A stretch of 64,000 bases of DNA from Rhodopseudomonas sp. P2A-2r (GTDB lineage: Bacteria; Pseudomonadota; Alphaproteobacteria; Rhizobiales; Xanthobacteraceae): assembly GCF_026015985.1 (NCBI RefSeq), contig NZ_CP110389.1:744001-808000 (forward strand), read 5' to 3'. Positions 10,368 to 28,675 of this stretch are shown here, piece after piece (the stretch's first letter is position 1; the number at the start of each line of letters is the position of its first letter). The notes under the pieces were generated by a model. It was not told where the DNA came from and made no database searches. It saw only the letters and a list, made by a program, of their open reading frames with translations. The position numbers and the translations under genes are program-made.

Positions 10368-10541
10368 ATTCCTTGCAACGGGTTTAAGGCATTGGAATTC
10401 GGACACAATCCTGCACAAACCGCGCGGCGATGCTGGTGGCATGCGGAGTGCATTGAGACATGCGTGGTCTCCTGTGACGCCCTTCGGCGTCCTGCTGGTC
10501 GAATGGCTCATGAATATGACGGTCCCCCTATCCTCAGCTCT

Positions 10542-11807
10542 ATGGAAGCCGATGTTTTGTCGCGGATCACCGAAGAGCGGTGGCTCGAACTGACGACGGA
10601 GCTGATCCGTACCGGTCAGCCGCGCTCGGGCAACCCGCTCGATCCTGATCTGCCGCCGGCGGAGGAAGAAGCGATATCGATGCTAGTCGCCGGTAAGCTG
10701 GAAGCAATCGGGATGGAGGTCACTAAGCATTCGGCGCAGCCGCATCGGCCCAATGTGCTTGGCGTTCTGAAGGGACGGGACGGGGCGCCTTCGCTGATCA
10801 TCAACGACCATCTCGACACCTATCCGGTCGTGGAGCCGGAAAAGTGGCACATGACCGACTTTGATCCGTTTAAGGCCACACGACATGGCGACCTGCTTTA
10901 TGCGCGGGGAACGTCGGACACGCGCGGCAACCTGGCGGCATCGTTGCTCGCAGTCCAGGCTTTGGTCGAGGCCGGTGTCGTCCTCGATGGCACGCTGATG
11001 TGCTGCTACACCGTCGATGAGGAGCGCAACGGGACCGAAGGCTCCATCTACATGTTGCAGCAGGTCGGCCTCACCGCAGATTATGAAATCACTGCGGAGC
11101 CGACCGCGTGGGGCGATGTGGCGGACGACTGGGGCATGAATCTGTCGGTGGCTAATTCTGGTCACTGCTTGATCGAGGTCACGGTCAAAGGCATCAAATC
11201 GCACATCTGGCGTCCCGATATCAGCATCAATGCGATCACCGAGGCCAGCCGGCTGCTGCCGCAGTTGAAGGCGATGGCGTTTACCCACGTGCCGGCCGGC
11301 TTCATGGGGCACACCCCGCCTTGCTGTTCGGTTGTGCGAATTCGCGGCGGTCTGGCTGGCGAAATGCAATTCTCGCCGGATGCCTGCACCATCACGCTGG
11401 CCGTGGTCGGCATCGTGCCGGGCATGACGCTGGCCAGCGTGATTGCCGACATCGAGCAGGCCGCCCGCGACACGTTCGCGGGCCATAACGAGATCGGCGT
11501 CGATGTCCGGCAGGTGCCGGGCTCGCTGTTCGTCAATGCCACCGAACCGGTACCGATCGAGGAAGAACCCTGCAAGTCGCTGCGTGCGGTCTACCGCCAG
11601 CTGATGGGCCGCGAGCCCGGGGTCAACCGCAAGAACGCCTTCAACGACACGATCCGCTTTCGCGAGGCCGGCATCAATGCGGTGACCTTCGGTCCCGGCG
11701 AAGATGGCTGGGCGGTCGACAACGAGAACATCTCCATCACCAAGGCGGTGATGGCGACCAAGATCTACGCGCTGACCATCATGAAAGTGCTGGGGCTGCG
11801 GATGTAA
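10542..11807 (+). CDS. M20-family metallopeptidase / deacylase (ArgE/DapE-like)
   Basis: 421 aa from ATG 10542, where family similarity begins; ATG 10503 is an alternative and neither has a clear ribosome site. Metal ligands visible are His90 and Asp92 (NDHLDTYP), Asp126 (ARGTSDTRGN), the catalytic Glu160/161 (VDEERNGTEGS) and Glu186 (ITAEPT). The usual C-terminal His (aHt.nE) is replaced by WAVDNENI, so the metal site or numbering is atypical. M20 enzymes cleave N-acyl amino acids, carbamoyl groups or small peptides. Its stop overlaps the permease start (TAATG), so it is the first gene of an import operon. It probably deacylates the imported compound. Confidence 0.85.
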   Translation: MEADVLSRITEERWLELTTELIRTGQPRSGNPLDPDLPPAEEEAISMLVAGKLEAIGMEVTKHSAQPHRPNVLGVLKGRDGAPSLIINDHLDTYPVVEPEKWHMTDFDPFKATRHGDLLYARGTSDTRGNLAASLLAVQALVEAGVVLDGTLMCCYTVDEERNGTEGSIYMLQQVGLTADYEITAEPTAWGDVADDWGMNLSVANSGHCLIEVTVKGIKSHIWRPDISINAITEASRLLPQLKAMAFTHVPAGFMGHTPPCCSVVRIRGGLAGEMQFSPDACTITLAVVGIVPGMTLASVIADIEQAARDTFAGHNEIGVDVRQVPGSLFVNATEPVPIEEEPCKSLRAVYRQLMGREPGVNRKNAFNDTIRFREAGINAVTFGPGEDGWAVDNENISITKAVMATKIYALTIMKVLGLRM

Positions 11808-12646: not shown

Positions 12647-12710
12647 ATTCCGGGCCGCCGAAAGGGGAGGTGGCCCGGTGCAAAACGTCCCCGTATTTCA
12701 GGAGAGAACG

Positions 12711-13718
12711 ATGAAGAGACTGCTCGCTTCACTCGCCACTGCGACGGCCGTTCTGACCAGCGCGGCATTCGCGGCCGACAAGCCAACCAAAGTGACGGTC
12801 GGTTATCTCAACCTGGTCAACGCGCAGCTCGTCACCAAGAACCTTGGCTTGCTTGCCAAGGAGATGCCGGGCGTCGAGATCAAATATGTCAAGGTGGGCG
12901 GCGGCGGCGATATGCTGCGGGCCATCGCTGGCAGCGACGTCGATTTCGGTGGCCTCGGTAATCCGCCGACTGCAATCGGCGCCACGCGCGCGCTGCCGAT
13001 AAAGGGCATCCTGGTGCTCAACATGCTCGACTACGTCGAGTCGATGGTTGTCCGGACTTCGAAGAATATCAAGTCGCTCAAGGATCTGAAAGGCAAGACG
13101 GTCGCAGCGCCATTCGGCTCGACGACCCATTACCTTCTATTGCAGGCGCTCAAGAAGGAAGGCGTCGATCCATCGTCGATGAAGATCCTGGACCTGCCAC
13201 CGGCGGACATCGCCTCTGCCTGGCTCCGCGGCGACCTCGACGCCGCGTGGTTCTGGGAGCCCAATCTCGACAAGACTGTCAAGAACGACGGCAATATCCT
13301 GATCACCTCCGGCGACATGCTCCGGAAAGGCTACCCGACGTGGGACATCGGTGTGGTCATGAATGCATTTGCCGAGAAGTACCCAGATTATGTCGTTAAA
13401 TTTGTCAGGGCGGAATGCGCGGGGATCGATTTCTGGCTGAAAAATCCGGAGAAGACCGCCGAAATCATCGCTGACGAGCTTTCGTTGCCGATCGCGGATG
13501 CAACGCGAATGATGAAAGGGACGTCGATGGTTGCGTGCGACAAGCAACTGACTGCGCCCTATCTCGGGACGTCCGCGAAAAAGGGTGAGTTTGTCGATAC
13601 GTTGCTGGCGACCGCCGATTTTCTTGTAAAGCAGGAAAGGCTGCCCAAGCTGCTGCCGCGCAAGGACTTTGAGGCCTTTATTGTGCCCGGCTATGTCGAG
13701 AAAGTGCTGGGCAAGTAA
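12711..13718 (+). CDS. ABC transporter substrate-binding protein (TauA/SsuA-like)
   Basis: 335 aa from the ATG at 12711, preceded by AGGAGAG at good spacing. The signal peptide ends near residue 21 (SAAFA). Periplasmic-binding domain features are KVTVGYLNLVNAQLV, the GGGGDMLRAIAGSDVDF loop and LKGKTVAAPFGSTTHY, which together are typical of the taurine receptor group. It binds a small sulfonate, nitrate-like or thiamine-precursor-like ligand; which one cannot be read from sequence. It lies 64 bases after the permease and is followed by a hairpin at 13738-13765. Confidence 0.88.
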   Translation: MKRLLASLATATAVLTSAAFAADKPTKVTVGYLNLVNAQLVTKNLGLLAKEMPGVEIKYVKVGGGGDMLRAIAGSDVDFGGLGNPPTAIGATRALPIKGILVLNMLDYVESMVVRTSKNIKSLKDLKGKTVAAPFGSTTHYLLLQALKKEGVDPSSMKILDLPPADIASAWLRGDLDAAWFWEPNLDKTVKNDGNILITSGDMLRKGYPTWDIGVVMNAFAEKYPDYVVKFVRAECAGIDFWLKNPEKTAEIIADELSLPIADATRMMKGTSMVACDKQLTAPYLGTSAKKGEFVDTLLATADFLVKQERLPKLLPRKDFEAFIVPGYVEKVLGK

Positions 13719-13737
13719 TCGCCGGAAACATCGATCG

Positions 13738-13765
13738 GGCGGGGCACGCGACGACGTGCTCCGCC
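13738..13765 (+). terminator. Hairpin after the first receptor gene
   Basis: GGCGGGGCACG, loop CGACGA, then CGTGCTCCGCC: an 11-bp stem with one G-U pair, 19 bases after the receptor stop. Only a weak T stretch follows, so it is a probable terminator or 3'-end stabiliser. Confidence 0.55.
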
Positions 13766-13824: not shown

Positions 13825-14550
13825 ATGGTTCGCAACGCAGGCAATCTGGCCCATGGAGCCGCTTGTCCTGGCGATGCGCGCGATGTGAGGGTTGATCGTT
13901 ACCTGCTCAAGGCGTTGGCCAGGCCCGATCTCGATCTGGTCATGTCGACGGGCGCCGTCTTCACCTACGAGAATCGCGACTATCTGCTGCGTGAGGGTGA
14001 AACCGGTGACGGCATCTATATCATCCTGAGCGGTGTGGTGGAGAGCACCTTTACCGGCCAACACGGCCGCGAATTGATGCTTGCAACCTGGCATGAGGGA
14101 GACTTTGTGGGCGCACCCTATGTGCTCGGCGATCACCGCCACAGTTGGTCGGCAAGGTCGCTGGGGCGGGTCGAGGCGCTGCACCTCGATCAGGGCGCCA
14201 TCCGCAGGCTGATCGGGCTGTCACCGGCGTTCGCCGTAGCGCTGATCGAAAGCCTTGGATTCAAGGGCGAAACCTATTCCGCGCTGGCCCAGATGCTGGG
14301 CGGCCAGAAAGTCGGCGAGCGGCTGGCCCTGTTGCTCCTCAATCTGTGCGAGAACGCCGCCACGTTGGGCGGCAACTCGGTCTCGTTGGGGCGTATTACA
14401 CAAGCGAACCTAGCAAGAATGATCGGAGCGACGCGGCAATCGATCAGCCTTGCCTTGAATCGTCTGGAGGACGAAGGCGTCATTACTGCGCACGCGACAA
14501 CGATGGTCGTTAACGACATCGCCGAGTTGAGGCGCGAGGCGGGCCATTGA
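13825..14550 (+). CDS. Crp/Fnr-family transcriptional regulator (first copy)
   Basis: 241 aa. The cyclic-nucleotide-binding fold spans ~30-145 (LREGETGDGIYIILSGVVES). A C-terminal winged HTH follows (ITQANLARMIGATRQSISLALNRLEDEGVI). The recognition helix TRQSISLAL lacks the E..SR and RE..R signatures of classic FNR and CRP. There is no N-terminal cysteine cluster, so oxygen sensing through Fe-S is unlikely. A paralogue lies at 24490 in the same island. Both are candidates to bind the GCAATTAATTGC palindromes found around it. Confidence 0.9.
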   Translation: MVRNAGNLAHGAACPGDARDVRVDRYLLKALARPDLDLVMSTGAVFTYENRDYLLREGETGDGIYIILSGVVESTFTGQHGRELMLATWHEGDFVGAPYVLGDHRHSWSARSLGRVEALHLDQGAIRRLIGLSPAFAVALIESLGFKGETYSALAQMLGGQKVGERLALLLLNLCENAATLGGNSVSLGRITQANLARMIGATRQSISLALNRLEDEGVITAHATTMVVNDIAELRREAGH

Positions 14551-14606: not shown

Positions 14607-14694
14607 TCCTTTTTGCCATGGAAGTATCCCACCGTTCCGCCGGGAGGGACATGCGTTCTTCCGCCATGGGCAGATCGTTTTCGGCCACCAGTTG

Positions 14695-15450
14695 ATGATC
14701 GAAATATCGATTGAGCGGGATCTTTTGGTCATTTTCATCGCAGGAATCTTCGGAGGAATTGTTCGCGGCTACTCGGGATTCGGCTTCGCGCTGGCGGCGA
14801 TGCCGATCCTGACCATCGTGGTCTCTCCGGCTATCGCGGTGCCTGCGGTCTTCCCGCTGGAGTGCCTGATCGGGCTTTCGACCTTGCCGCGCGAGCAGGT
14901 TAACGTGGATCTGAGCGTGCTCAAATGGCTGGCTCTCGGGTCGTTGATCGGCACGCCGCTCGGCATCGGCGTTTTGTCTCTGATGCCGGCAAACCCGATG
15001 CGTCTTGCCGTCGCTCTGGCGGTCGGGGCGGCGACGTTCAGAGCCTGGCGGGGGATGCGGGAAACCATGGCCGAGAACCCCTCGAATCTGGCCTTAATCG
15101 GCTTCCTGTCGGGCTGCCTCAATGGCGGGACGGGTCTGAGCGGGCCGCCTGTGATTGTTTCCCTGCTCGGCAGCAACATGCCGGTGATCGCGGCGCGCGC
15201 CACATTAATTGCCTTCATCGCGATGAGCGCAGGGTTTGGCGTCGTTCTCTCCGCCGCGCACGGAGCTTATTCGCTGCATGTCGCGCGCATCAGCCTCATG
15301 ATGGCGCCGGCGGCGGCAGCGGGCTGTGCGCTTGGCCTGTTCGCCTTCTCCTATGGACCGCGCCATTGTTATCGTTCGATTTCGCTCTCGCTTCTCGCCG
15401 TCGCCATGACCATTGCCGTTGTTACGGCGACCCTCGCCATGATCAATTAA
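14695..15450 (+). CDS. TauE/SafE-family anion (sulfite) exporter
   Basis: 251 aa from ATG 14695; the TTG three bases earlier is possible. Seven to eight hydrophobic helices are seen, with the family's repeated glycine-rich motifs (FGGIVRGYSGFGFALAAMPI near the start and the second-half GFLSGCLNGGTGLSGPPVI). TauE/SafE members export sulfite or sulfoacetate, or other small organic anions, across the inner membrane. An island rich in sulfonate-type importers fits disposal of sulfite from desulfonation; this is an inference. A palindromic box precedes it and an amidase follows 39 bases after its stop. Confidence 0.85.
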   Translation: MIEISIERDLLVIFIAGIFGGIVRGYSGFGFALAAMPILTIVVSPAIAVPAVFPLECLIGLSTLPREQVNVDLSVLKWLALGSLIGTPLGIGVLSLMPANPMRLAVALAVGAATFRAWRGMRETMAENPSNLALIGFLSGCLNGGTGLSGPPVIVSLLGSNMPVIAARATLIAFIAMSAGFGVVLSAAHGAYSLHVARISLMMAPAAAAGCALGLFAFSYGPRHCYRSISLSLLAVAMTIAVVTATLAMIN

Positions 15451-15489: not shown

Positions 15490-16863
15490 ATGGACCTCGC
15501 GTTGATCGACTTCAGTTTTGCTTCAGTTCGTTCGGCACTGGCGCGCGGCGTATCGGCCGATAGGATCGTCGAGGAAGCCTGCCGCCGCGCGCAAGCCTGC
15601 GCGGAGGATGGCATATTCACCTCGCTCGTCCCGCCGGCGCAGGCCACCGAGCGGGCCCGGCAGTTGCAAGCCAGGGCCGATGCCGGTGAAAATCTGCCTC
15701 TGCTCGGCCTGCCGTTTTCGGTCAAGGATAGCATTCACGTTGCCGGGATGATCACCACCAGCAACTGTGCGGCGCTGCAATTGAAGCCGGAGGACTCCGC
15801 CTTTGCCGTCACGCGCCTGGAGGACGCCGGCGCGGTCCTGATCGGCAAGAACACGCTGGACCAGTTCGCCACCGGCCTGAACGGGACCCGAAGCCCCGAG
15901 CCGCTGTGCCGCAATGCGATCAACCCGGCCTACATTCCTGGCGGCTCCAGTTCCGGCTCTGCGGTCGCTGTGGCGCGTGGTATCGTCGCGTTTTCGCTCG
16001 GGACGGACACTGGTGGCTCGGGGCGGGTGCCCGCGGCTTGCAACGGCATCATTGGCCTGAAGCCGACCATCGGTCTCGTGAGCTCGCGTGGACTGCTATA
16101 CAATAACCGTTCGTTCGACTGCATTCCGGTGTTTACGACACTGTGCGACGAGGCTTACGAAATTCTCGAACACATCGCCGGATTCGATGTCGAGGACCCG
16201 CTCAGCCGCAGCGATGCGGATGCCATCGACCTGCAGGCCCGGCCGTCGGAGCCGCTGACGATCGCTGTTCCGCGTGCGGACCAGATGACGTTCTTCGGCG
16301 ATGAGGAAGCGCGCAGGACGTACGAGGTCAATCTCGCGCTGCTGCAGTCGATGGGGCACCAGTTGCGGCCCATCGACTTCACGCTGTTCGAGGCGGCGGG
16401 CCGTCTGGTCTTTCAGAGCGCCATGGTCGCGGAACGCCTGATCGACTACAAGGACGTCGTCGAAAACCATCGGGACGCCATTCATCCGGCGGTTTGGGCT
16501 GCGGTCGAGCCCGGCTTCAAATACACCGCGATGGACGCCTTCGAGACGCTGTATGCGATCAAGGCGCTGCAGCGCAAAGCACTCCTGCTGCTCGAGGGAT
16601 GCAGCGCCATGGTGGTGCCGACCGTGCCGACTGTGTTCACCATCGATCAGATGCTGGCGGACCCGATGGCGCTCAATACTGCGATGGGCACCTATACCTA
16701 TTTCGTCAATCCGCTGGACATGTGCGCAGTGGCCGTTCCCGGCAAGGCTCGCGCCGACGGCCTGCGCTCTTCACTTTGCTTCGTCGCACGCTCAGGGGCT
16801 GATGGCCTGGTGCGGACGCTCGGGCGCACGTTCGAACGACAGGTCGCAGCCACGGGACAATAG
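15490..16863 (+). CDS. Amidase-signature enzyme (AtzF/allophanate hydrolase-like)
   Basis: 457 aa. The Ser-cisSer-Lys triad is present: Lys79 in FSVKDSIHVAG, the cis-Ser in GGSSSGS (151-157), and the nucleophile Ser177 in TDTGGSGRVPAACN. Length and the GLKPTIGLVSSRGL segment resemble the amidase domain of allophanate hydrolases and related small-amide hydrolases. It lacks the C-terminal extension of full allophanate hydrolase. Following the TauE-like exporter in the same direction, it may hydrolyse an amide released from the imported compound. Confidence 0.88.
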   Translation: MDLALIDFSFASVRSALARGVSADRIVEEACRRAQACAEDGIFTSLVPPAQATERARQLQARADAGENLPLLGLPFSVKDSIHVAGMITTSNCAALQLKPEDSAFAVTRLEDAGAVLIGKNTLDQFATGLNGTRSPEPLCRNAINPAYIPGGSSSGSAVAVARGIVAFSLGTDTGGSGRVPAACNGIIGLKPTIGLVSSRGLLYNNRSFDCIPVFTTLCDEAYEILEHIAGFDVEDPLSRSDADAIDLQARPSEPLTIAVPRADQMTFFGDEEARRTYEVNLALLQSMGHQLRPIDFTLFEAAGRLVFQSAMVAERLIDYKDVVENHRDAIHPAVWAAVEPGFKYTAMDAFETLYAIKALQRKALLLLEGCSAMVVPTVPTVFTIDQMLADPMALNTAMGTYTYFVNPLDMCAVAVPGKARADGLRSSLCFVARSGADGLVRTLGRTFERQVAATGQ

Positions 16864-17043: not shown

Positions 17044-18039
17044 ATGTTGGACGTCAGAACGGCCGCCTTCACTGCTGCGATCTTGCTTGCGTCGGTCTTT
17101 CGACCGGATCCGGCGTCTGCCGAATTGCTGAAGGCAAGGCTCGCCCAGAATTTGGGTCCGATCTCCGGCGTCGTCATCGTCGCCAGGGAGCAAGGCTTTT
17201 TCGAAAGGCGCGGGCTCGATATCTCGGTCAGCAACTTCACCTCCGGGAAGCAATGCCTCGACACCGTGGTCGGTGGCGGTGCTGACATTGCCACAACGGC
17301 GGAGGCCCCGGTGACGGCGGCGGCGATGGCCGGTCAGTCGATCGCCTTCCTCGCCCGCATGGAATATTCCGACCTCAAGACGATCGTGGCCAGCAAGGCG
17401 GGCGTCAAGAGCAAGGCCGACCTCAAGGGCAAGAAGATTGCGTTCACCGCCGGGACCGGAAGCGAGGTCTATACGTTGGCGTTGCTGGCGAGTGCCGGGT
17501 TGAAGAAGGAGGATGTCACGCTGGTCAACCTGCGACCGCAGGAGATGCTGCCAGCGCTGGTGGCCGGCAGCATCGATGCTTTCGATACCTGGGAGCCGCA
17601 CATTGCCAATGCCAAGAAGACATTGGGACCGGACGTGGCGCAGATCGACACCAAGGGCATCTATTCGGAGACGTTCAATATCGTCGTGATGCGTGACTAT
17701 CTGGAAAAGAACGGCCCTCTGGTTGAGAAATTCCTGGCCGCCATGCTCGATGCGGAAGCCTGGATGAAGTCCAATCCGGAGGAGGCGATCACGGTCGTCT
17801 CAAAGGCCGTTGGGATCAAGCGCGAAGAACTGGCACCGATCTGGACGGACTATGTCTATCAGGTCACGCTGGACGACAAGCAGATCGACATTCTCAAGGC
17901 TCATGCGGCCTGGCGGCTCGCGAGCGGAAATCATCCGCCGGGCGCAACGATGCCGGACTTTCTCAAGGTGCTGGAGCCTGGTCCGCTGAAGAAGCTCGAT
18001 CCGACCCGCGTGACCTACTCCGGCCAGCGCGGCGGCTAG
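17044..18039 (+). CDS. ABC transporter substrate-binding protein (SsuA-like)
   Basis: 331 aa with a signal peptide ending near residue 26 (DPASA). SsuA/NMT1-type features: an EQGFFERRGLDISV segment, GGGADIATTAEAPV (ligand loop), LKGKKIAFTAGTGSEVY and FDTWEPHIANA. It heads a three-gene importer with the permease 9 bases downstream and the ATPase overlapping that. It could also serve the orphan permease at 11807. Ligand is likely a sulfonate or related small anion, by family only. Confidence 0.9.
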   Translation: MLDVRTAAFTAAILLASVFRPDPASAELLKARLAQNLGPISGVVIVAREQGFFERRGLDISVSNFTSGKQCLDTVVGGGADIATTAEAPVTAAAMAGQSIAFLARMEYSDLKTIVASKAGVKSKADLKGKKIAFTAGTGSEVYTLALLASAGLKKEDVTLVNLRPQEMLPALVAGSIDAFDTWEPHIANAKKTLGPDVAQIDTKGIYSETFNIVVMRDYLEKNGPLVEKFLAAMLDAEAWMKSNPEEAITVVSKAVGIKREELAPIWTDYVYQVTLDDKQIDILKAHAAWRLASGNHPPGATMPDFLKVLEPGPLKKLDPTRVTYSGQRGG

Positions 18040-18048
18040 AGATCGGCG

Positions 18049-18810
18049 ATGACCAGCGGGCAAGCGCAGCGCCTCAATACGGCGATCTCGATATTGTCGA
18101 TTCCGTTGTTTTTCGGCGTCTGGGAGCTGGTTTCGCGTTCCCACATCGTCAACATCGTGCTGTTCCCGCCGCCTTCGGTGGTCGCAGTGGCGATGGTCGA
18201 GTGGATCAAGAGCGGCCAGTTCGCCATTGACCTTGCGGTCAGTGTCTATCGGGTCGTGGCCGGCTTCCTTCTCGGGGCGTCTGTCGGCGTCGTCTTCGGG
18301 GTTTTGACCGGTCAGTTCCAGCTGTTTTCCAGCCTGTTTTCCCCGATCTTCCATATCCTGCGGCCGATCCCACCGATAGCCTTCGTACCGATCGTGATCC
18401 TGTGGTTCGGGTTGTCCGAGACCGGAAAGATCTTCCTGGTGTTCTGGGGCGTGTTCTTCACGGTTTGGCTAACCACCCACATCGGCGTGCAGAAGATCGA
18501 TCGCGGCCTCATTCGCGCGGCGCTGATGCTGGGTACGCCCCGGCGCCGCATGCTCGGTGAGATCGTCCTGTTCGGGGCCTTGCCCTATATCGCGGTTGGC
18601 CTGCGGAACGCCGTCAGCATTTCCTTCTACACACTGGTGGCCGCCGAACTCGCCGGGTCGCTGGCCGGGATCGTGTACCGCATCGAAATTGCCCAGCAGA
18701 ACCTGCAGACCGGGCAGGTGATGGGCGGCCTCGTCGCGCTGGGGGCCGTCTCCTTCCTGGCTGATCGCGGCTTCGCCGCCTTGACCCAGCGTCTGGTATG
18801 GTGGCGATGA
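18049..18810 (+). CDS. ABC transporter permease (SsuC-like)
   Basis: 253 aa, six predicted helices. The EAA loop is seen as RAALMLGTPRRRMLGEIVLFG. RPIPPIAFVPIVILWFGL is typical of the sulfonate/nitrate permease group. Its stop overlaps the ATPase start in an ATGA junction at 18807-18810. Confidence 0.92.
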   Translation: MTSGQAQRLNTAISILSIPLFFGVWELVSRSHIVNIVLFPPPSVVAVAMVEWIKSGQFAIDLAVSVYRVVAGFLLGASVGVVFGVLTGQFQLFSSLFSPIFHILRPIPPIAFVPIVILWFGLSETGKIFLVFWGVFFTVWLTTHIGVQKIDRGLIRAALMLGTPRRRMLGEIVLFGALPYIAVGLRNAVSISFYTLVAAELAGSLAGIVYRIEIAQQNLQTGQVMGGLVALGAVSFLADRGFAALTQRLVWWR

Positions 18811-20672: not shown

Positions 20673-20906
20673 TCACCTCAGGAGATAGGGGATATTGACC
20701 TTGACGGCACCCGTCGGGCAGTCGGCTTCGCACGGCATGCAGTACCAGCATTCGTCATAGGCCATATAGGCCTTCCCGGTCATGTCGCTGATGCGCAGCA
20801 CGTCGAGCGGACAGACGTCAACGCAAACCGTGCAGCCCTTGTCAGCGATGCATTTGGCGTCGTCGACGACGACCGGAACGGAGGTTTCACAACTGGCGAG
20901 GGGCAT
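20673..20906 (-). CDS. 2[4Fe-4S] ferredoxin-type protein (AprB-like partner)
   Basis: 77 aa with eight-plus cysteines in two clusters: CIADKGCTVCVDVCP in the first half and CWYCMPCEADCP in the second. These fit two [4Fe-4S] centres, with the first cluster unusually spaced, as in AprB-like subunits. AAGGA stands eight bases before the ATG. It lies 29 bases downstream of the AprA-like flavoprotein stop and is probably its electron-transfer subunit. No signal peptide, so cytoplasmic. Confidence 0.88.
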   Translation of the reverse strand: MPLASCETSVPVVVDDAKCIADKGCTVCVDVCPLDVLRISDMTGKAYMAYDECWYCMPCEADCPTGAVKVNIPYLLR

Positions 20907-20935: not shown

Positions 20936-22678
20936 TCAGGCGCTGGCACGCACGCGCTGCTTATCATACAGGTCCTTCTCGTCGTCCGCGATCGGGACGA
21001 TGTAGGGCTCGACGGCACGCTTTTCGCTGCTCATCTTGCCGTCCTTTTTGCTCAACAGCGTGTGGCAGAACCAGTCGGCGTCGTTCTTCTCCGGGTAGTC
21101 GGTGCGCAGGTGGTAAAGGCCCCAGCGGCTTTCAGTGCGGTACAGTGAGGCATGCGCGGCCATGTCCGCGCAGTCGAGGATCGAATGGGTTTCCAGCGCG
21201 CGCAGGAGCTCGTGCGAGTTGCGCGCAATCATCTGCGTTTCCATGTCGTCGCGAACTTCGCCGAGTCGTTTCTGGCCAATCTCGAACTTCCTTGTTACTT
21301 TCGGTGGCTGCAGGTAGTCGTTAACGAGGCGTCGCGCCTTGTACTCGATCTGGTTGGGCGGGATGCCGTCCTCCCGCTTGGTCGGTGCCATCACGCGGTC
21401 GCGCTCGATCGCCACGTCGCTTGCGTCGAACGTCGCGAAATCGACGTTGTCGGCATACTCCATCGCATGTTCGCCGGCGACCGAACCGTTGGTGAAGGCG
21501 CCCAGCATGTAGTTGTGCGGTACGCTGGCCATGTCGCCGGCCGCGTAAAGGCCCGGCACCGTGGTGCGAGCAAATTCGTCCACGAATACACCCGACGCGC
21601 TGTGGCCGGAGCAGAAGCCGATTTCGGAGATATGCATTTCGATCGGCTCGTGACGATAATCCGTGGTGCGGCCTTCGTGGAAAATGCCGCGCGTGGGCCG
21701 CTCCACCTTGTGCAAGGTGGTTTCGATCTCGCTGATCGTGTCCTCGTGCAGATGGTTGAGCTTCAGGAACACCGGGCCCTTGCCCGACTGCAGCTCGTTA
21801 TAGAATTCCAGCATCATCTGGCCGGACCAGTAATCACATTCAATAAAGCGTGCGCCCTCGTTATTGGCGGTGAAGGCGCCATAGGGCCCCGCCACATAGG
21901 CGCAGGCCGGACCGTTATAGTCCTTGATCAGTGGATTGATCTGAAAGCACTCGAGGTTCGCGAGCGCGGCGCCGGCGTGATAAGCCATCGCGTAGCCGTC
22001 GCCCGAATTGGCGGCGTTCTCGTAGGTGCCGAACATGTAGCCGGATGTCGGCAGGCCGAGGCGGCCGGCCGCGCCCATGCACAGGATCACGGCCTTGGCC
22101 TTGATCACCAGGATTTCAGCGGTGCGGGTGTTGACACTGACGGCGCCGGCGATGCGGCCGTCGCCGCTTTTCAGGAGGCGCGTCGCCATGTAGCGGTTCG
22201 AGATCAGGATGCGGGCACGACGCAACTGGCGATAGAGCGCTTTCTTGACCGTCTCGCCATTGGGCATTGGCAGCACGTAGGTGCCGATATGGTGCACCTT
22301 CTTCACGGCGTAGTCGCCGTTCTCGTTCTTGAGGAAGCGAATGCCGAAGCTGTCGAGTTCCTCGATAATCGAGTAGCACTTTTCAGCGTATTTGTAGACG
22401 GCCTTCTGGTCGACGATGCCGTCATTCGCGATGGTGATTTCCTTTGTGTACTGCTCGGGCGTCGCGTAGCCGGGGATCACCGCATTGTTGAGGCCATCCA
22501 TGCCCATCGAAATGGCGCCGGACCGCTTCACGTTGGCTTTTTCCAGCAGCACCACATTGGCCTTTGGATTCTTCAGCTTGGCCTTCAGCGCGGCCATCGG
22601 GCCCGCGGTGCCGCCGCCGATCACCAGCACGTCGCAGGACACCTCCGAGAGGCCATCCAGAATTTCGTCCATTGCCAT
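20936..22678 (-). CDS. AprA-like FAD-dependent oxidoreductase (fumarate reductase/APS reductase family)
   Basis: 580 aa, start at 22678 (AAGGA seven bases upstream). The FAD dinucleotide-binding motif is VIGGGTAG (residues 19-26). EKANVKRSGAISMGMDGLNN is close to the equivalent stretch of AprA, the adenylylsulfate reductase alpha subunit. The family's second FAD motif is GLYAAGDMASVPHNYMLGAF. It is shorter than AprA (~620-660 aa) and the active-site residues cannot be confirmed here. It heads an operon with a ferredoxin and a HEAT protein. Fumarate reductase is the alternative family name, but there is no SdhB/C/D. A redox step on a sulfur compound is inferred from AprA likeness and from neighbouring sulfite/sulfate exporters. 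Confidence 0.8.
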   Translation of the reverse strand: MAMDEILDGLSEVSCDVLVIGGGTAGPMAALKAKLKNPKANVVLLEKANVKRSGAISMGMDGLNNAVIPGYATPEQYTKEITIANDGIVDQKAVYKYAEKCYSIIEELDSFGIRFLKNENGDYAVKKVHHIGTYVLPMPNGETVKKALYRQLRRARILISNRYMATRLLKSGDGRIAGAVSVNTRTAEILVIKAKAVILCMGAAGRLGLPTSGYMFGTYENAANSGDGYAMAYHAGAALANLECFQINPLIKDYNGPACAYVAGPYGAFTANNEGARFIECDYWSGQMMLEFYNELQSGKGPVFLKLNHLHEDTISEIETTLHKVERPTRGIFHEGRTTDYRHEPIEMHISEIGFCSGHSASGVFVDEFARTTVPGLYAAGDMASVPHNYMLGAFTNGSVAGEHAMEYADNVDFATFDASDVAIERDRVMAPTKREDGIPPNQIEYKARRLVNDYLQPPKVTRKFEIGQKRLGEVRDDMETQMIARNSHELLRALETHSILDCADMAAHASLYRTESRWGLYHLRTDYPEKNDADWFCHTLLSKKDGKMSSEKRAVEPYIVPIADDEKDLYDKQRVRASA

Positions 22679-22821: not shown

Positions 22822-23844
22822 TCAGCGGTGCAGCATCAGGAAAATCGTGACGTTCGCCAGCAGCACCAGAGACAACAGCAGCAACAGCACGAGGGGCCGC
22901 CACCCGAACGACTGGATTGCCCGCCACGGCAGAGTAAGGCCGATCGCCGCAACGGCCATCACCAGCAGAAAGCGCGACAGCGGTGCGGCGACGGCGGTGG
23001 CTGCGGGCGGCACCGCCCCCGCAATCGTGAGCGCAGCGAACGCGACAAAGGCGATCAGGAACGCCGGTGGCAGAGGCACCGCCGCCTTGTCGACGGCGGA
23101 AGGCGCCGCGCCCCGCACCGGTAACATGGAGACCAGCAGCGCGGCAGGCGCCAGCATGGCCACGCGCAGCAGTTTGGCAACGGTCGCCACCTCGCCGGTC
23201 GCGGGATCGATACTGTAACCTGCTGCCACCGCGTGCGCGACCTCGTGGATCGTACCGCCGAGCAGAATTCCGCCGTTGCCGGCGTCGAGGCCAAGTACGG
23301 CCAGCAGCGGCGGATAGACCAGGAGGGCGATCGAAGACAGGATGCTCACGGCGCCGATCGTGCAGGCGACATCGCGCTTGTCGGCGTCGTCGCGCAGCAG
23401 AACAATCGCGAATGCGGCCGCCGCCGATGCGCCGCAGATGGCGACGGCGGCGGCCGAGACCAGCGACAGGTTGCGGTTCAGCCCCAGCAGCGCGCCCAGC
23501 GCCCAGCCGATCGACAGGATTATGACGACGTTTGCAGCGAGCATCACAATGGTCGTGATATCGAGGACCTGAAGCGTCGCCCCCGAGATCTGAAATCCGA
23601 GCAGGGCGACACCTGTGCGCATGAGATGTTTGCCGGCAAAACCGATTCCGGGCAAAAATGCGCGGGCTGGCGGCGCCAGTGACGCAGCGCCCAGCCCCAG
23701 CAACAGACCCCACGCGACCGCGCTGCCGGCGACGGTCGCCATGGCCGAAGCCACAGCCCCAAGTAAAGCACAGAGCAGAACTCCCAGCGCGGGGTGCTGG
23801 GTCCAGTAAGGGGCGGCGGAGTATTGCCGAAGGCGTGCGAGCAT
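22822..23844 (-). CDS. YeiH-family (UPF0324) putative sulfate exporter
   Basis: 340 aa from the ATG at 23844; longer in-frame starts add non-hydrophobic sequence. About ten to eleven membrane helices. Family motifs: KHLMRTGVALLGFQIS, CGASAAAAFAIV, and GGTIHEVAHAVAAGYS with its histidines. YeiH proteins are annotated as putative sulfate exporters; direct evidence of substrate is limited. It lies upstream of the AprA-like operon on the same strand and shares a divergent promoter region with the DUF971 gene that carries a perfect palindromic box. Confidence 0.85.
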   Translation of the reverse strand: MLARLRQYSAAPYWTQHPALGVLLCALLGAVASAMATVAGSAVAWGLLLGLGAASLAPPARAFLPGIGFAGKHLMRTGVALLGFQISGATLQVLDITTIVMLAANVVIILSIGWALGALLGLNRNLSLVSAAAVAICGASAAAAFAIVLLRDDADKRDVACTIGAVSILSSIALLVYPPLLAVLGLDAGNGGILLGGTIHEVAHAVAAGYSIDPATGEVATVAKLLRVAMLAPAALLVSMLPVRGAAPSAVDKAAVPLPPAFLIAFVAFAALTIAGAVPPAATAVAAPLSRFLLVMAVAAIGLTLPWRAIQSFGWRPLVLLLLLSLVLLANVTIFLMLHR

Positions 23845-23966
23845 GATGCCAAACTCTCGTTGGCACGGCGGGAAGCCTGCCAACGCCAGGCAAGATGGTT
23901 CTCCGTTCGCCAGCAGAACAAGCAAGGAATTGCCGGCATCTTCCCCCTGATGGGAGATTTTCGTCC

Positions 23967-23978
23967 GCAATTAATTGC
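23967..23978. promoter_or_regulatory. Perfect palindrome GCAATTAATTGC in divergent promoter region
   Basis: 12-bp perfect palindrome between the YeiH-like gene (start 23844, minus strand) and the DUF971 gene (start 24028, plus strand). It is the most symmetric of the boxes in this island and serves as the reference. Inferred operator for the Crp/Fnr proteins at 13825 and 24490. Confidence 0.6.
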
Positions 23979-24027: not shown

Positions 24028-24378
24028 ATGACCCGGATCGATCTGCCGGCGACGCTTGTCGCCAAACCTGGCGCTGTGCCGACACAAATCGCGGTGAGCG
24101 ATGACCTGAGCTTTCTCGAGGTCACCACGGCAGCCGGCGATGTCGAACGGCTGGGCGCCGAGCGATTACGCCTCGCGTGCAAGTGCGCGCATTGCCTGCG
24201 CGCGCGGATCGATGGCGCGTTTCCGAACCGCTTTGAAGGTATTGCGATCACCGCCGTGGCCCCGGTCGGCGGCTATGCCATCAATCTTTCGTTCTCCGAC
24301 GGCCATGCGCGCGGGATTTACCCGTGGGCGTTTCTGCTTGGCCTGGTCGAAGGTGCGCCCGACGCACAACAGCATTGA
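24028..24378 (+). CDS. DUF971 (gamma-butyrobetaine hydroxylase N-terminal-like) protein
   Basis: 116 aa from ATG 24028, with GGAG seven bases upstream. The DUF971 fold is seen in LRLACKCAHCLRAR (C..C pair of the zinc-binding type), ITAVAPVGGYAINLSFSDGH and GIYPWAFLLGL. Free-standing DUF971 proteins occur near Fe-S biogenesis and carrier genes, and some are proposed helpers in Fe-S protein maturation. Next to an Fe-S ferredoxin/flavoprotein operon this would make sense; it remains inference. Confidence 0.82.
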   Translation: MTRIDLPATLVAKPGAVPTQIAVSDDLSFLEVTTAAGDVERLGAERLRLACKCAHCLRARIDGAFPNRFEGIAITAVAPVGGYAINLSFSDGHARGIYPWAFLLGLVEGAPDAQQH

Positions 24379-24489: not shown

Positions 24490-25281
24490 ATGCAACTTAA
24501 TGCAACTAATACTGCGGCGTCTGCTCATACTAAGAAAATGGCGGCGCATGCGGCGGCGGCAGGTGGTGGCGGTCAGTCGCTGCTGTTGACGGAAAGTGCG
24601 GGGGCGCTGGGCGGCCCGCCGTCGTTCTTTGAATCGTTGTCGCCGTCCGAACGCGAGACGGTCCTGAAGCAGGGGCGGCGCAAGGTGCTGTACCGCGGTC
24701 AGACGCTGTTCAACCAGGGCGCCCGGCACGACGGCATCTACCTGATCGAGACCGGCCGGATCCGGGTTTTCTACACCGCACCGTCGAGCCGCGAAATCAC
24801 TCTGGCCTATTGGCATCCCGGCAATTTCGTCGGTGGCCCCGAAGTATTCGGCGGCGGCGCGCATCAATGGTCGGGCGTTGCCACCAGCAACAGCAGCGTC
24901 GTCCAATTGCCGGGCAGGGAATTGCGCGCGCTGGTGGTGCAGGTCCCCAACCTCGCGATCGGGCTGATCGAGGGGCTGGCCTTCAAGGGCAAATGCTATT
25001 CGGCGCTGGCGCAGATGCTGGGCACACGGTCGATCACCGAACGACTTGCGCATCTGCTGCTGCACCTTGTCGAACTGTACGGCGTCGACAACCCAGACGG
25101 CATCCTGATCGCCTCGGCATTCACCCATGCGGATCTTGCGCACATGGTCGGCGCCACGCGCCAGTGGGTGACGATCAGCCTCAAGCGGATGCACGAAAAG
25201 GATATCGTCACCTCCCGCAAATCCCGAATTGTCGTGCGACGCCCCGATTTGTTGCAGGAGATGAAGGGTTTGGGCGACTGA
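24490..25281 (+). CDS. Crp/Fnr-family transcriptional regulator (second copy)
   Basis: 263 aa. A ~45-residue alanine/glycine-rich N-terminal extension precedes the nucleotide-binding fold (LFNQGARHDGIYLIETGRIRV, ~75-190). The C-terminal HTH reads FTHADLAHMVGATRQWVTISLKRMHEKDIV. It is the paralogue of the regulator at 13825: both share FKG..YSALAQMLG and the GATRQ.(V/I)(S/T) recognition helix. No cysteine cluster for Fe-S. It lies directly before the third importer and after DUF971. Confidence 0.9.
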   Translation: MQLNATNTAASAHTKKMAAHAAAAGGGGQSLLLTESAGALGGPPSFFESLSPSERETVLKQGRRKVLYRGQTLFNQGARHDGIYLIETGRIRVFYTAPSSREITLAYWHPGNFVGGPEVFGGGAHQWSGVATSNSSVVQLPGRELRALVVQVPNLAIGLIEGLAFKGKCYSALAQMLGTRSITERLAHLLLHLVELYGVDNPDGILIASAFTHADLAHMVGATRQWVTISLKRMHEKDIVTSRKSRIVVRRPDLLQEMKGLGD

Positions 25282-25348
25282 TCCATGCCTCTCGATACGG
25301 CTTGGCCGCGTCCGGATGCTCAAGGACTAAGCATTAGGTCCTTTTACG

Positions 25349-25360
25349 GCAACTAATCGA
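25349..25360. promoter_or_regulatory. Degenerate palindromic box GCAACTAATCGA upstream of third receptor
   Basis: 9 of 12 positions match GCAATTAATTGC. It lies ~98 bases before the ATG at 25458, comparable to the other boxes. Inferred operator, weaker than the others. Confidence 0.35.
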
Positions 25361-25457
25361 CCGCTTCCACACGAGGAGGTTTGCTCGGTGGCCGGGATCG
25401 ACAAAGGATGTCGAAGTCGGGGTTAGACACCCAAGCGCATCACCACCGGGGGCTCCA

Positions 25458-26885
25458 ATGGTTGGCAATCTGAAGTTTCGCGCACTATCCACAGTGGCGC
25501 TGACCGCGATCGGGTTGCTGCTCGCCGGAAGGGCAGATGCGCAGACCACGGTGACGATCGGTATCGGTACCCAGGACACCACCACCAACACCGCGACCAC
25601 CGGCGTGATCATTCGTCAGCTCAAGCTGATGGATAAGTACATGCCGAAGGATGGCAAATACGCCTCCATCAAATTCGAATACGAGTGGCAAAACTTCACG
25701 TCCGGGCCGCCAGTCACCAATGGCATGATGGCTAACAAGCTGCAGTTCGGCGCGATGGGCGATTATCCGCTGGTCGTCAACGGCTTCACCTTTGAGAGCA
25801 ATCCGGACAGCAAGAGCAGGTTGATCGCGGTGGCCGCGTACAGCCTGGACGGTTCCGGCAACGGCCTCGTCGTGCATAAGGACTCGCCCTACTATGAGCT
25901 GTCCGATCTCAAGGGCAAGCTGGTGAGCGTCCCCTTCGGCTCCGCCGCCCACGGCATGGTGCTGAAGGCGATGCAGGACAAAGGCTGGCCGGCCGATTAC
26001 TTCCAGCTGGTGAGCCAGAGTCCCGAGGTCGGCTCGACCAACCTGCAGGAAAAGAAGATCGACGGTCACGCCGACTTCGTGCCGTTTGCCGAATTGCTGC
26101 CGTTTCGCGGCTTTGCGCGAAAGATCTTCGATGGTGTCGAGACCAATTTGCCGACCTGGCACGGCGTGGTGGTGCGCACCGATTTTGCGGAAAAGTATCC
26201 GGAAGTGGTGGTGGCCTACTTGAAGGCGGTCATTGCCGCCAACGCCTGGCTGCGCGCCGATCCGAAGCTGGCCGCCGAGAAGATCCAGGAATGGACCGGC
26301 ATCAACAAGGAAGTCGTCTACATCTTTCTTGGTCCCGGCGGTAATATGACGACCGATCCCACGATCAAGCCGGCGCTGATCGATGCCGCGGCAGTCGATC
26401 TCAAGGTGCTGCAGTCGCAGGGCCGCGTGAAGGAGTTCGATCCGAAGAAGTGGGTCGACGACAGCTACCTGCGCAAGGCCTTTGCCGAGCTCAACATTGA
26501 TTATGAGGCGCAGCTCAAGAGCGCGCAGAATTACGAGATCAAGGGTGACGACGCGTTCTGCAAGAAGCCGATCAGCAATCCCCGCACGGCCGGGGAGGTC
26601 TGGGTGGATGGCGGGGCGATCGAGCCCTTCAGCAGTGCCGCCTGCACCCTTGGAGCCTATGCGGATCTCAAGGCCAAGGGCCGCAAAGTCAATGTTGCCT
26701 ACGTGTTCGATACAGCGCGGGGCATCAAGCTGTTCGCCGACCAGGCCTACTTTGCCGTCGGTACCGAGAAGGGCGAGATCGCCCCGTTCTTGCTGAAGAA
26801 GGATGCCGAGGCCTACGCCACCAAGATAAAGGGCAAGGTGCTCAACTTCGACGAGGCTCTCAAATCAGCCGTCAGTGGAGGTTAG
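25458..26885 (+). CDS. ABC substrate-binding protein (SsuA/NrtA-like) with C-terminal NosL-like domain
   Basis: 475 aa, much longer than ordinary SsuA-like receptors (~320-340). The signal peptide ends near residue 28 (AGRADA). Residues ~30-345 form the receptor domain (FTSGPPVTNGMMANKLQFGA, LKGKLVSVPFGSAAHG). After about residue 365 a second domain begins, with cysteines in DAFCKKP and SSAACTLG. It ends VNVAYVFDTARGIKLFADQA, then YFAVGT, FLLKKDAEAYATKIKGKVL and NFDEALK. This tail resembles NosL, the copper-binding accessory protein of nitrous oxide reductase. The next codon after its stop starts the permease, so it is the receptor of the third importer. The fusion may tie ligand uptake to a metal or redox partner; that is speculation. 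Confidence 0.8.
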   Translation: MVGNLKFRALSTVALTAIGLLLAGRADAQTTVTIGIGTQDTTTNTATTGVIIRQLKLMDKYMPKDGKYASIKFEYEWQNFTSGPPVTNGMMANKLQFGAMGDYPLVVNGFTFESNPDSKSRLIAVAAYSLDGSGNGLVVHKDSPYYELSDLKGKLVSVPFGSAAHGMVLKAMQDKGWPADYFQLVSQSPEVGSTNLQEKKIDGHADFVPFAELLPFRGFARKIFDGVETNLPTWHGVVVRTDFAEKYPEVVVAYLKAVIAANAWLRADPKLAAEKIQEWTGINKEVVYIFLGPGGNMTTDPTIKPALIDAAAVDLKVLQSQGRVKEFDPKKWVDDSYLRKAFAELNIDYEAQLKSAQNYEIKGDDAFCKKPISNPRTAGEVWVDGGAIEPFSSAACTLGAYADLKAKGRKVNVAYVFDTARGIKLFADQAYFAVGTEKGEIAPFLLKKDAEAYATKIKGKVLNFDEALKSAVSGG

Positions 26886-27800
26886 ATGGTGCGCACCGCC
26901 CTCCGACAGCGCGAGCAGGCAGCCATATATCCAGATCTCGCCACGGCGGCTGCGCGCCGGGAGGCAGCACACGTCCGTCCAGCTGAAGCTGCGCCGGCGC
27001 CTGTCCCCTATCTCACGCGTTGGTACCGGGTTAACCGCGGAGGACTGCGCGCCGTGTCAATCGGTGCGGTGTCGCTGCTGCTGTTCCTGCTGGCGTGGCA
27101 CCTGCTCACCACCCATCGGGTCGTATTCTTCGTGCGTTTTACCAACGTGCCATCCCCCGCAGCGGTGTATGAGAGCATGACCCGCGCAGCGCATGACAGC
27201 AAATTCCTGATGCACGTGCTGCTGAGCTGCCGTCGCATTCTGTTCGGCTTTGTTCTGGCCGCTCTCGTTGCCGTCCCGCTCGGACTGATCATGGGCCGGT
27301 TTAAGCTCGTTCATGAGGTGCTGTTTCCGATCACTGAAATCCTGCGCCCGATTCCGGCAATCGCCTGGGTGCCGATGGCGATCATGCTGTGGCCGAGCAA
27401 CGAGCAAAGCATCGTCTTCATCACATTTCTCGGCGCTTTCTTTCCGATTCTTGTCAACAGCCTGCACGGCATGACGCTGGTCGATCCAGTGCTGGTACGA
27501 GCATCACAATGCCTCGGTGCCCGCGAACTCGCGATCTTTCGTGAGGTCTACTTCCCCGCCTCATTGCCGCACATTTTCACCGGCCTGACCGTCGGAATGG
27601 GTGTTGCCTGGGTGTCACTGATCGCCGCAGAGATGATCTCCGGACAGTTCGGCATCGGTTACTTTACGTGGGAAGCATATTCACTGGTGCAGTACGCCGA
27701 CATTGCGTTGGGAATGATCTGTATCGGCATCCTCGGCCTCGGATCGAGTGCGTTGATCCGTGGCCTCGGCCGCCTCTTGATGCCATGGAGCCGAACATGA
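26886..27800 (+). CDS. ABC transporter permease (SsuC/NrtB-like)
   Basis: 304 aa, starting at the base after the receptor stop. A hydrophilic N-terminal ~55 residues precedes six helices. The EAA loop is ASQCLGARELAIFREVYFPA and the group motif ILRPIPAIAWVPMAIMLW. Its end overlaps the ATPase start (ATGA, 27797-27800). Confidence 0.92.
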   Translation: MVRTALRQREQAAIYPDLATAAARREAAHVRPAEAAPAPVPYLTRWYRVNRGGLRAVSIGAVSLLLFLLAWHLLTTHRVVFFVRFTNVPSPAAVYESMTRAAHDSKFLMHVLLSCRRILFGFVLAALVAVPLGLIMGRFKLVHEVLFPITEILRPIPAIAWVPMAIMLWPSNEQSIVFITFLGAFFPILVNSLHGMTLVDPVLVRASQCLGARELAIFREVYFPASLPHIFTGLTVGMGVAWVSLIAAEMISGQFGIGYFTWEAYSLVQYADIALGMICIGILGLGSSALIRGLGRLLMPWSRT

Positions 27801-28675
27801 GTAACGTGAGCGCTGCCCCCGTTCCAAGCAGAGGGTTCGTCGACGTCCGCAATTTCAGGCTCAGCTATCCCACGCTGGACGGGCCCGTCGAGGCGGTCTC
27901 CGGCGCGTCCATCCATGTCGATCCCGGTGAGTTCGTGTCGATCGTGGGACCGTCCGGCTGTGGCAAGTCCACATTGCTCAACGCGGTTGCCGGGTTCCTC
28001 AAGCCGACCGGCGGCGATGTGACCTTGGACGGCAAGGATATCGATGGCCCCGGCGCCGATCGGGGCATGGTGTTTCAGCAATACTCGCTGTTCCCCTGGA
28101 AGACCGTAAAAGGCAACGTCGAGTTCGGCTTGAAGATGAAGCACCTCGACAAGTCCAGCCGCGATCGCGCGGCGCGAACGCTGCTCGGCCTCGCCGGCCT
28201 GACGGCGTTCGAGAACAAGTATCCCGACAGCCTGTCCGGCGGCATGAAGCAGCGCGTCGGCATCGTCCGTGCGCTCGCCACGGGCCCCAAAGTGCTGCTG
28301 CTCGACGAGCCTTTCGGCGCTCTCGATGCGCAGACCAGGGTTATCATGCAGCAGATCCTCACCAATATGTGGCAGCGTCTCAAGATATCCGTTTTGTTTG
28401 TCACTCATGATATCGACGAGGCGATCTTCCTGTCGGATCGCGTTTATTGCATGACGGCGCGTCCGGGCACGATCAAGGCCGAGATCAAGATTCCGCTCGA
28501 GCGACCGCGGCAGCAGTCGATGATGATGTCGCCGGAATTCCTCGCTCTGCGCGGTGAACTGATGTCATTGATAAGCGAGGAAAGCATCAAGGCGATGGGC
28601 GGCGAACTCAATGATCTGGCGCTCGACGGATTGAGCGTCGACCTTCATGGTCAATCACTGGCTGACGTCGTTTGA
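27797..28675 (+). CDS. ABC transporter ATP-binding protein (SsuB/NrtD-like)
   Basis: 292 aa from ATG 27797, overlapping the permease stop; ATG 27785 would add four residues. Walker A GPSGCGKST, signature LSGGMKQR, Walker B VLLLDEPFGALD, H-loop VTHDIDEA, and the FQQYSLFPWKTV group motif. It has a ~45-residue C-terminal tail beyond the SsuB core, of unknown role. Last gene of the third importer and of the island. Confidence 0.93.
   Translation: MSNVSAAPVPSRGFVDVRNFRLSYPTLDGPVEAVSGASIHVDPGEFVSIVGPSGCGKSTLLNAVAGFLKPTGGDVTLDGKDIDGPGADRGMVFQQYSLFPWKTVKGNVEFGLKMKHLDKSSRDRAARTLLGLAGLTAFENKYPDSLSGGMKQRVGIVRALATGPKVLLLDEPFGALDAQTRVIMQQILTNMWQRLKISVLFVTHDIDEAIFLSDRVYCMTARPGTIKAEIKIPLERPRQQSMMMSPEFLALRGELMSLISEESIKAMGGELNDLALDGLSVDLHGQSLADVV

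What the first reader, a model, noticed from the sequence alone, without database searches (positions are those of the whole stretch)
10503..28675. Candidate undescribed system: import, deacylation, AprA-like redox and sulfite/sulfate export island
An 18-kb block combines three SsuA/TauA-like receptors with permeases, an M20 deacylase, an amidase, TauE- and YeiH-type exporters, an AprA-like flavoprotein with 2[4Fe-4S] ferredoxin, a HEAT protein, a DUF971 protein and two paralogous Crp/Fnr regulators. No known desulfonation enzyme (SsuD, TauD, Xsc) is present. A flavoprotein-ferredoxin pair related to APS reductase beside sulfite and sulfate exporters suggests a new route that releases or oxidises sulfur from an acylated or amidated organosulfur compound.
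Basis: inference. Interest (0 to 1): 0.8.

Follow-up and report, generated by a model that had tools for sequence, protein, structure and literature searches.

The report
APS-reductase-like organosulfur uptake gene module
A bacterial gene set that recurs in several phyla pairs a sulfonate-type importer with an iron-sulfur flavoprotein resembling a sulfur-handling enzyme; it is usually labelled fumarate reductase and probably frees sulfur from an organic compound, but its substrate has not been identified.

Summary
The 18-kb block, however, is a conserved core plus a variable half. The core (19692-28675) is flavoprotein FP, 2[4Fe-4S] ferredoxin, HEAT protein, DUF971, a long SsuA/TauA-type receptor with permease and ATPase, and a Crp regulator. 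Of 80 related loci, Fd is in 77, HEAT 79, DUF971 73, SBP3 70; variants occur in other Proteobacteria, Cyanobacteria and an actinobacterium (FP-HEAT fused). M20, amidase and the other importers are rarely linked. FP, annotated 'fumarate reductase', falls with APS/PAPS reductase by tree, sequence and predicted fold. It keeps Asn64 and the SE-x5-GxH motif, but APS-binding residues are replaced and the fumarate-reductase motif is absent. A ferredoxin-NADP reductase gene lies beside FP in 63 of 80 loci (not here), so electrons probably flow towards FP. YeiH exporters recur nearby in Alphaproteobacteria. Best reading: a sulfur-scavenging module in which NADPH-FNR-ferredoxin-FP releases sulfite from an imported sulfonate-like compound. 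Asf (arylsulfonate) has the same plan, but its flavoprotein is not orthologous; a 2025 paper predicted organosulfonate uptake for an At. caldus plasmid copy. Substrate and direction are untested. New variant of a known kind.

The parts
20936..22678 (-). FP: APS/PAPS-reductase-like flavoprotein (NF006131; annotated fumarate reductase/succinate dehydrogenase flavoprotein)
20673..20906 (-). Fd: 77-aa 2[4Fe-4S] ferredoxin, 29 bp downstream of FP
   Evidence: present in 77 of 80 loci
19692..20669 (-). HEAT-repeat protein, 3 bp downstream of Fd; fused to FP in Tsukamurella (893 aa)
   Evidence: present in 79 of 80 loci
22822..23970 (-). YeiH-type putative sulfate/sulfite exporter (PF03601)
   Evidence: within 10 kb of FP in 7 of 21 FP genomes
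24028..24378 (+). DUF971 (GBBH-like N-terminal, PF06155) protein
   Evidence: 73 of 80 loci; an Mrp/NBP35 gene follows HEAT in the three cyanobacterial loci
24490..25281 (+). Crp2: Crp/Fnr-family regulator
   Evidence: 68 of 80 loci
25458..26885 (+). SBP3: long (475 aa) SsuA/TauA-like receptor with extra C-terminal part (borderline NosL-like)
   Evidence: 70 of 80 loci
26886..27800 (+). permC: ABC permease of the SBP3 importer
   Evidence: 70 of 80 loci
27785..28675 (+). ATP_C: ABC ATPase of the SBP3 importer
   Evidence: 72 of 80 loci
10503..11807 (+). M20 family hydrolase (ArgE/DapE-like, below cut-off); variable neighbour
   Evidence: 1 of 80 loci (L080, 63% identity), 51% relative in L087
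11807..12646 (+). permA: TauC-like permease (below cut-off), no own ATPase; variable neighbour
12678..13718 (+). SBP1: TauA-like receptor (152.9 bits to taurine-binding 6ssy); variable neighbour
   Evidence: 1 of 80 loci
13825..14550 (+). Crp1: Crp/Fnr-family regulator, paralogue of Crp2
14692..15450 (+). TauE/SafE family exporter; variable neighbour
   Evidence: 1 of 80 loci; also near FP in L128, L129, L132 by annotation
15490..16863 (+). Amidase, closest to the amidase part of allophanate hydrolase (485 bits, cut-off 487); variable neighbour
17044..19598 (+). SBP2-permB-ATP_B: second complete SsuABC-like importer; variable neighbour
   Evidence: SBP2 in 3 of 80 loci

Best explanation
The core 19692-28675 is a sulfur-scavenging module. 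SBP3-permC-ATP_C imports an organosulfur compound of the sulfonate type. In the cytoplasm FP, an iron-sulfur flavoprotein of the APS/PAPS-reductase branch, acts on it with electrons that reach its FAD through the 2[4Fe-4S] ferredoxin. In most relatives the electrons would come from NADPH via an adjacent ferredoxin-NADP reductase; here the only close one is elsewhere in the genome. Reduced FAD attacks the sulfur and sulfite leaves, as proposed for APS and PAPS reductases; it is assimilated or, in excess, exported by YeiH or TauE. HEAT and DUF971 (Mrp in Cyanobacteria) help assemble or hold the Fe-S/flavin complex; Crp/Fnr, GntR or LysR proteins switch the module. Shown: gene content, conservation, kinship, residue pattern, FNR linkage. 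Inferred: substrate class, direction, chemistry, exporter use, roles of HEAT and DUF971. The M20, amidase, TauA- and SsuABC-like genes at 10503-19598 look like locally added uptake and hydrolysis functions.
Confidence: 0.5

Rival explanations
1. FP-Fd is an electron-supply pair, like the role proposed for AsfAB: it does not touch sulfur itself but feeds a flavin monooxygenase (SsuD or LLM type, encoded elsewhere) that desulfonates with O2.
For: [quoted passage not shown] SsuD is over its cut-off in 18 of 21 FP genomes and beside FP in three Hyphomicrobium loci; LLM/NtaA-type genes are near FP in L059, L084, L085.
Against: No monooxygenase domain among the 18 genes of the block; of 80 loci, relatives of the SsuD query are in 3 and of the NtaA query in 1. 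The SsuD link is weak once relatedness is controlled. FP is not orthologous to the C. metallidurans Asf-like protein (24% over 425 aa). FP keeps residues shared with PAPS reductases. The window genome's own SsuD match has a TAG in frame.
Confidence: 0.2
2. The module handles a non-sulfur compound, for example an amide or other N-compound, and the exporters are incidental.
For: NMT1 receptors serve varied ligands (recalled; one nitrate transport protein among SBP3's four PDB hits); the amidase is allophanate-hydrolase-like; P-II and ammonium transporter genes lie near one copy.
Against: SBP3's three best solved relatives are taurine/sulfonate binders; recurrent YeiH, and ssu or TauE neighbours in some genomes; FP kinship with APS/PAPS reductases.
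Confidence: 0.2
3. FP-Fd is an assimilatory APS or PAPS reductase, as in Methanothermococcus, for sulfate assimilation.
For: Closest solved structure is MtPAPSR, an assimilatory PAPS reductase of this fold (PMC10322725, passages read). Two of 21 FP genomes (G054, G387) have only a weak CysH-type match, about 60 bits.
Against: 19 of 21 FP genomes have a full-length match to the CysH-type model TIGR02055, 10 of them over its cut-off of 235; the window genome's is 157.5 bits, below it. PF01507, which also covers CysD (recalled), is in 21 of 21. AprA W234, R265, Y95, Q145 and G274 positions are replaced throughout the FP clade. A dedicated SsuA-type importer would be superfluous.
Confidence: 0.05
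4. FP-Fd oxidises sulfite (to APS or sulfate) and the exporters remove the product, the oxidative half of the first reader's idea.
For: AprA can run towards sulfite oxidation (PMC10504309, passages); exporters are nearby.
Against: APS-pocket residues absent; FNR beside FP in 63 of 80 loci suggests reductive flow; none of the 18 genes of the block scanned is a sulfate adenylyltransferase.
Confidence: 0.05

Closest known systems
PAPS reductase of Methanothermococcus thermolithotrophicus (8a8o; PMC10322725)
   Same: Flavoprotein plus 2[4Fe-4S] ferredoxin subunit; nearest solved sequence and fold; shared invariant N64, E352, G358, H359
   Different: About 28% identity (P0241); many fixed differences, several at pocket positions; no importer or HEAT partner in the passages read
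Dissimilatory APS reductase AprAB
   Same: Fold, same side of the deep branch, SE-x5-GxH motif and Asn74 equivalent
   Different: APS-binding W234, R265, Y95, Q145, G274 replaced in FP; Fd is 77 aa, solved AprB chains are 150-166 aa; no Sat or Qmo gene among the 18 scanned
Asf arylsulfonate cluster asfRABC (P. putida S-313; C. metallidurans AsfA/AsfB)
   Same: Reductase/ferredoxin pair with substrate-binding protein and ABC transporter for organosulfur (PMC4267179, PMC2864759 passages)
   Different: Flavoprotein only 24% identical over 425 aa to the C. metallidurans Asf-like protein; no HEAT or DUF971 in the described cluster; LysR AsfR instead of Crp/GntR
At. caldus plasmid pTcM1/pAca1.1 cargo (PMC12375680)
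   Same: Homologous FP, ferredoxin, HEAT, permease and ATPase genes (L086); authors predicted organosulfonate uptake and assimilation
   Different: GntR regulator; a prediction, no experiment in the section read; the wider family is not described in it
SsuABCDE / TauABCD sulfonate systems
   Same: Receptor, permease and ATPase families
   Different: No SsuD or TauD in the block; a redox Fe-S flavoprotein instead

Membership tests
NF006131 / PRK08275 flavoprotein family | score over curated cut-off 587 | tested here: met
   1072 bits; 21 of 398 phylum genomes have a member over the cut-off
Fumarate reductase / succinate dehydrogenase (FrdA/SdhA) | HGANRLGxNSL-type dicarboxylate-binding motif (motif and role recalled) | tested here: not met
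   Seen in Ec FrdA, SdhA and the FRD row, absent in the window and the three other FP rows printed
Fumarate reductase / succinate dehydrogenase (FrdA/SdhA) | groups with SdhA/FrdA in a tree | tested here: not met
   only three such outgroup rows plus the Asf-like row were used
APS reductase AprA | AMP/APS-binding W234, R265, Y95, E141, Q145, G274 (A. fulgidus numbering and roles recalled) | tested here: not met
   Y219, L250, E80, K/R126, H/R130, C259 in 23 of 23 FP rows
APS reductase AprA | Asn74 and His398 equivalents, SE-x5-GxH motif (roles recalled) | tested here: met
   N64 invariant in the AprA, MtPAPSR and FP rows; N64, E352, G358, H359 invariant in all 99 FP and PAPSR-like rows; the His398 column was read from the printed rows, since that part of 1jnr was not printed
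APS reductase AprA | reduces APS to sulfite | not testable with these tools
   needs enzyme assay
Asf arylsulfonate system | AsfA orthologue | tested here: not met
   FP against C. metallidurans megaplasmid: best E 2.7e-15; Asf-like pair L121 24% identity over 425 aa. That L121 is Rmet_4334/5 is inferred from the adjacent ferredoxin; the record held has no annotation. The P. putida S-313 protein itself was not available
Asf arylsulfonate system | reductase + ferredoxin + receptor/ABC transporter | tested here: met
Asf arylsulfonate system | needed for growth on arylsulfonates | not testable with these tools
   genetics needed
TauA/SsuA receptors | score over curated cut-offs | tested here: not met
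   SBP1 193.6 of 304 (TauA); SBP2 142.6 and SBP3 107.2 of 163.5 (SsuA_fam): related, below cut-off

The most novel reading that the evidence does not exclude
FP-Fd is a new kind of desulfonating enzyme: a ferredoxin-driven reductive desulfonase that needs no O2 and cleaves a C-S (or N-S) bond through a flavin N5-sulfite adduct, present in Proteobacteria, Cyanobacteria and Actinobacteria under the wrong name 'fumarate reductase', with its own importer and HEAT/DUF971 maturation proteins.
Probability: 0.25. Interest if true: 0.85.

Novelty: new variant of a known kind. Interest (0 to 1): 0.5.

Why it matters
About 95% of soil sulfur is organic, sulfonates among it, and in soil bacteria its release from sulfonates is described as monooxygenase-based (PMC4267179, passages). 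Other desulfonation routes are known, among them glycyl-radical lyases in anaerobes (recalled; a Bilophila paper is in the listing). FP relatives occur in 54 of 56 matching plasmid records, 48 near full length, and in 21 of 398 proteobacterial genomes, among them rhizobia and cyanobacteria. If FP-Fd frees sulfite itself, it is a flavin/ferredoxin route unlike these, and a large family is misnamed. The question which sulfur source needs FP is directly testable.

Tried and rejected
Asf orthology: rejected for the C. metallidurans protein. FP as true AprA, as assimilatory (P)APS reductase, or as fumarate reductase: rejected or unlikely. SsuD co-occurrence as proof of a sulfonate role: strong across the phylum (p 2e-12), pooled p 0.02 and stratified p 0.12 within families. 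Amidase and TauE linkage: not clearly above chance in 21 genomes (positions read by eye from listings that were cut). Ten paper searches: for the module; for asf 22, 33, 36; for PAPS reductase 58; for Bradyrhizobium sulfonate genes 73. Among what they listed, the only description of these genes that I recognised was the At. caldus plasmid paper; listings were capped and the library holds open-licence papers only. Expression of FP was looked for in PMC7661421, PMC8305402, PMC3732241, PMC8557817 and PMC11852219 (passages only): I recognised none. The sulfonate genes in PMC7784912 and PMC11941057 (passages) are SsuD-type or not told apart there. asfA diversity was seen in PMC9694294 (passages). 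PMC3506598 was opened for asfA primers: passages only, no primers found. First structure job (28 close rows) gave pLDDT 51.7 and was discarded. The second used a hand-picked 99 rows: window, 21 loci, and 5, 28 and 44 of the 120 proteins listed by each of three searches. SBP3's ligand could not be tested.
Full report
OBSERVATION. The window is part of a 6.74-Mb single-contig genome whose nearest named relatives in the FP search are Rhodopseudomonas and Bradyrhizobium. There are three receptor genes, three permeases but only two ATPases. FP, Fd and HEAT are tightly packed on the minus strand (29 and 3 bp between them); SBP3, permC and ATP_C are packed or overlapping on the plus strand.

WHAT IS CONSERVED. 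Eighty loci encoding FP relatives (76-95% identity) were fetched; the scan had confirmed 582 and kept the best 80. Counting relatives of the window genes in all 80 at bit thresholds that I set, contig-edge loci included (14 are under 19 kb): Fd 77, HEAT 79, DUF971 73, ATP_C 72, SBP3 70, permC 70, Crp2 68, YeiH 36, amidase 9, SBP2 3, TauE 1, M20 1, SBP1 1. Fd is missing only in three Hyphomicrobium loci, where FP and HEAT lie with ssu-type transporter genes and an SsuD relative instead. Most of the 80 are Bradyrhizobium, so the counts are not independent; by my genus labels read from record titles, Fd is in 26 of 27, HEAT in 26 and SBP3 in 22. In the plasmid collection 56 records match FP at 1e-20, 54 of them at 55% identity or more, 48 of these near full length. 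I fetched 15 of the 56 with their gene tables, chosen by hand for spread: Fd 15 of 15; separate HEAT 14, the other (Tsukamurella) having FP and HEAT fused in 893 aa; SBP3-type receptor 12; DUF971 7; Mrp/NBP35 in the three cyanobacterial ones. In a sample of 398 genomes of the phylum 21 have FP over its cut-off.

ELECTRON SUPPLY. A ferredoxin-NADP reductase homologous to the one in the Methylobacterium radiotolerans cluster lies within 1.5 kb of FP in 63 of 80 loci, 19 of 27 genus labels, 47 on the same strand and 16 divergent; an fdxA ferredoxin is in 22 of the 80. Seventeen loci, and the window, lack the FNR gene; the window genome has one close FNR (66%) far away, at 6.38 Mb. This points to NADPH feeding electrons to FP; it is inference from gene order.

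SULFUR CONTEXT. YeiH lies within 10 kb of FP in 7 of 21 FP genomes against about 0.09 expected from its copy number; six of the seven are one family, so the naive p is too small, and none of the nine genomes outside the window's class shows it. It is also near FP in Labrenzia, Mesorhizobium, Thalassococcus and Actibacterium, and with TauE in Leptolyngbya and Pseudanabaena. TauE alone is no better than chance in the 21 genomes (1 seen, 0.63 expected). SsuD is over its cut-off in 18 of 21 FP genomes against 50 of 377 others; within the six families that hold FP it is 18 of 21 against 18 of 33, pooled p 0.02, and with five strata (one family had no FP-negative member) p 0.12. SBP3 matches four solved proteins: taurine-binding, two sulfonate-binding, and weakly a nitrate transport protein. 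In Leptolyngbya the LysR gene near FP encodes an extra domain 31% identical to SBP3 over 331 aa, suggesting that the imported compound is also the inducer. A full-length CysH-type match (TIGR02055) is in 19 of 21 FP genomes, 10 over the cut-off and the window's own below it, so most do not depend on FP for sulfate reduction.

COMPARISON WITH WHAT IS KNOWN. The nearest described plan is Asf: reductase/ferredoxin plus receptor and ABC transporter, required for aromatic sulfonates in P. putida S-313 (PMC4267179, passages; named in C. metallidurans in PMC2864759, passages). In C. metallidurans the flavoprotein next to a ferredoxin at 929 kb of the megaplasmid is 24% identical to FP over 425 aa; the record held carries no annotation there, so its identity as AsfA/AsfB is inferred. 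The At. caldus plasmid copy (L086) belongs to cargo that PMC12375680 lists as ferredoxin/APS reductase/GntR and sulfonate transporter modules; the text predicts organosulfonate uptake and assimilation for two operons (section 22 read). MtPAPSR and its proposed FAD N5 attack on sulfur come from PMC10322725 (passages).

MECHANISM AND VERDICT. Most likely the module imports a sulfonate-like compound and uses NADPH-derived electrons, through ferredoxin and FP, to release sulfite; HEAT and DUF971/Mrp would serve Fe-S assembly or complex formation. Gene content and kinship are shown; substrate, direction and chemistry are inferred. The half at 10503-19598 is a variable neighbour: of the 80 loci its M20-permA-SBP1 part recurs near FP only in L080 (63-72% identity), and a 51% M20 relative lies by the M. 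radiotolerans cluster. I rate this a new variant of a known kind, interesting because a large family is probably misnamed and, as far as I found, untested, not because a new chemistry is shown.

Noticed in passing
G000:C1:560713-561750 (outside the window): The genome's best SsuD match (630 bits) has one TAG inside the matched frame, so its main alkanesulfonate monooxygenase may be broken or the assembly wrong.
   Followed up: no
L128:7388-9424 (-): LysR regulator carrying an SBP3-like domain (31% over 331 aa), near FP in Leptolyngbya; a 49% relative sits near FP in Pseudanabaena L129.
   Followed up: partly
L056, L057, L058 (Hyphomicrobium): FP and HEAT without the ferredoxin, placed with ssu-type transporter genes and an SsuD relative.
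   Followed up: partly
window 41378-56507: Genes for parts of two branched-chain/urea-type ABC transporters around an acetamidase/formamidase (47948-48937), a nitrilase-type hydrolase (48951-50690) and an SDR: looks like an amide-utilisation cluster.
   Followed up: no
window 35579-38653: Isochorismatase-family hydrolase followed by an Amidohydro_3 protein.
   Followed up: no
L134 (Sinorhizobium americanum plasmid): SBP3 and permC relatives are short and not in the gene table there, so the importer may be decaying while FP-Fd-HEAT is kept.
   Followed up: no
L068 (Rhodospirillaceae MAG): The FP match contains one stop codon in frame; left as it is.
   Followed up: no
L086 (At. caldus pTcM1): The FP cluster on a 65-kb mobilizable plasmid, with fdxA and a 1153-aa FAD oxidoreductase where other clusters have FNR.
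   Followed up: no
window 4011-6491 (+): Autotransporter beta-domain protein of 826 aa.
   Followed up: no
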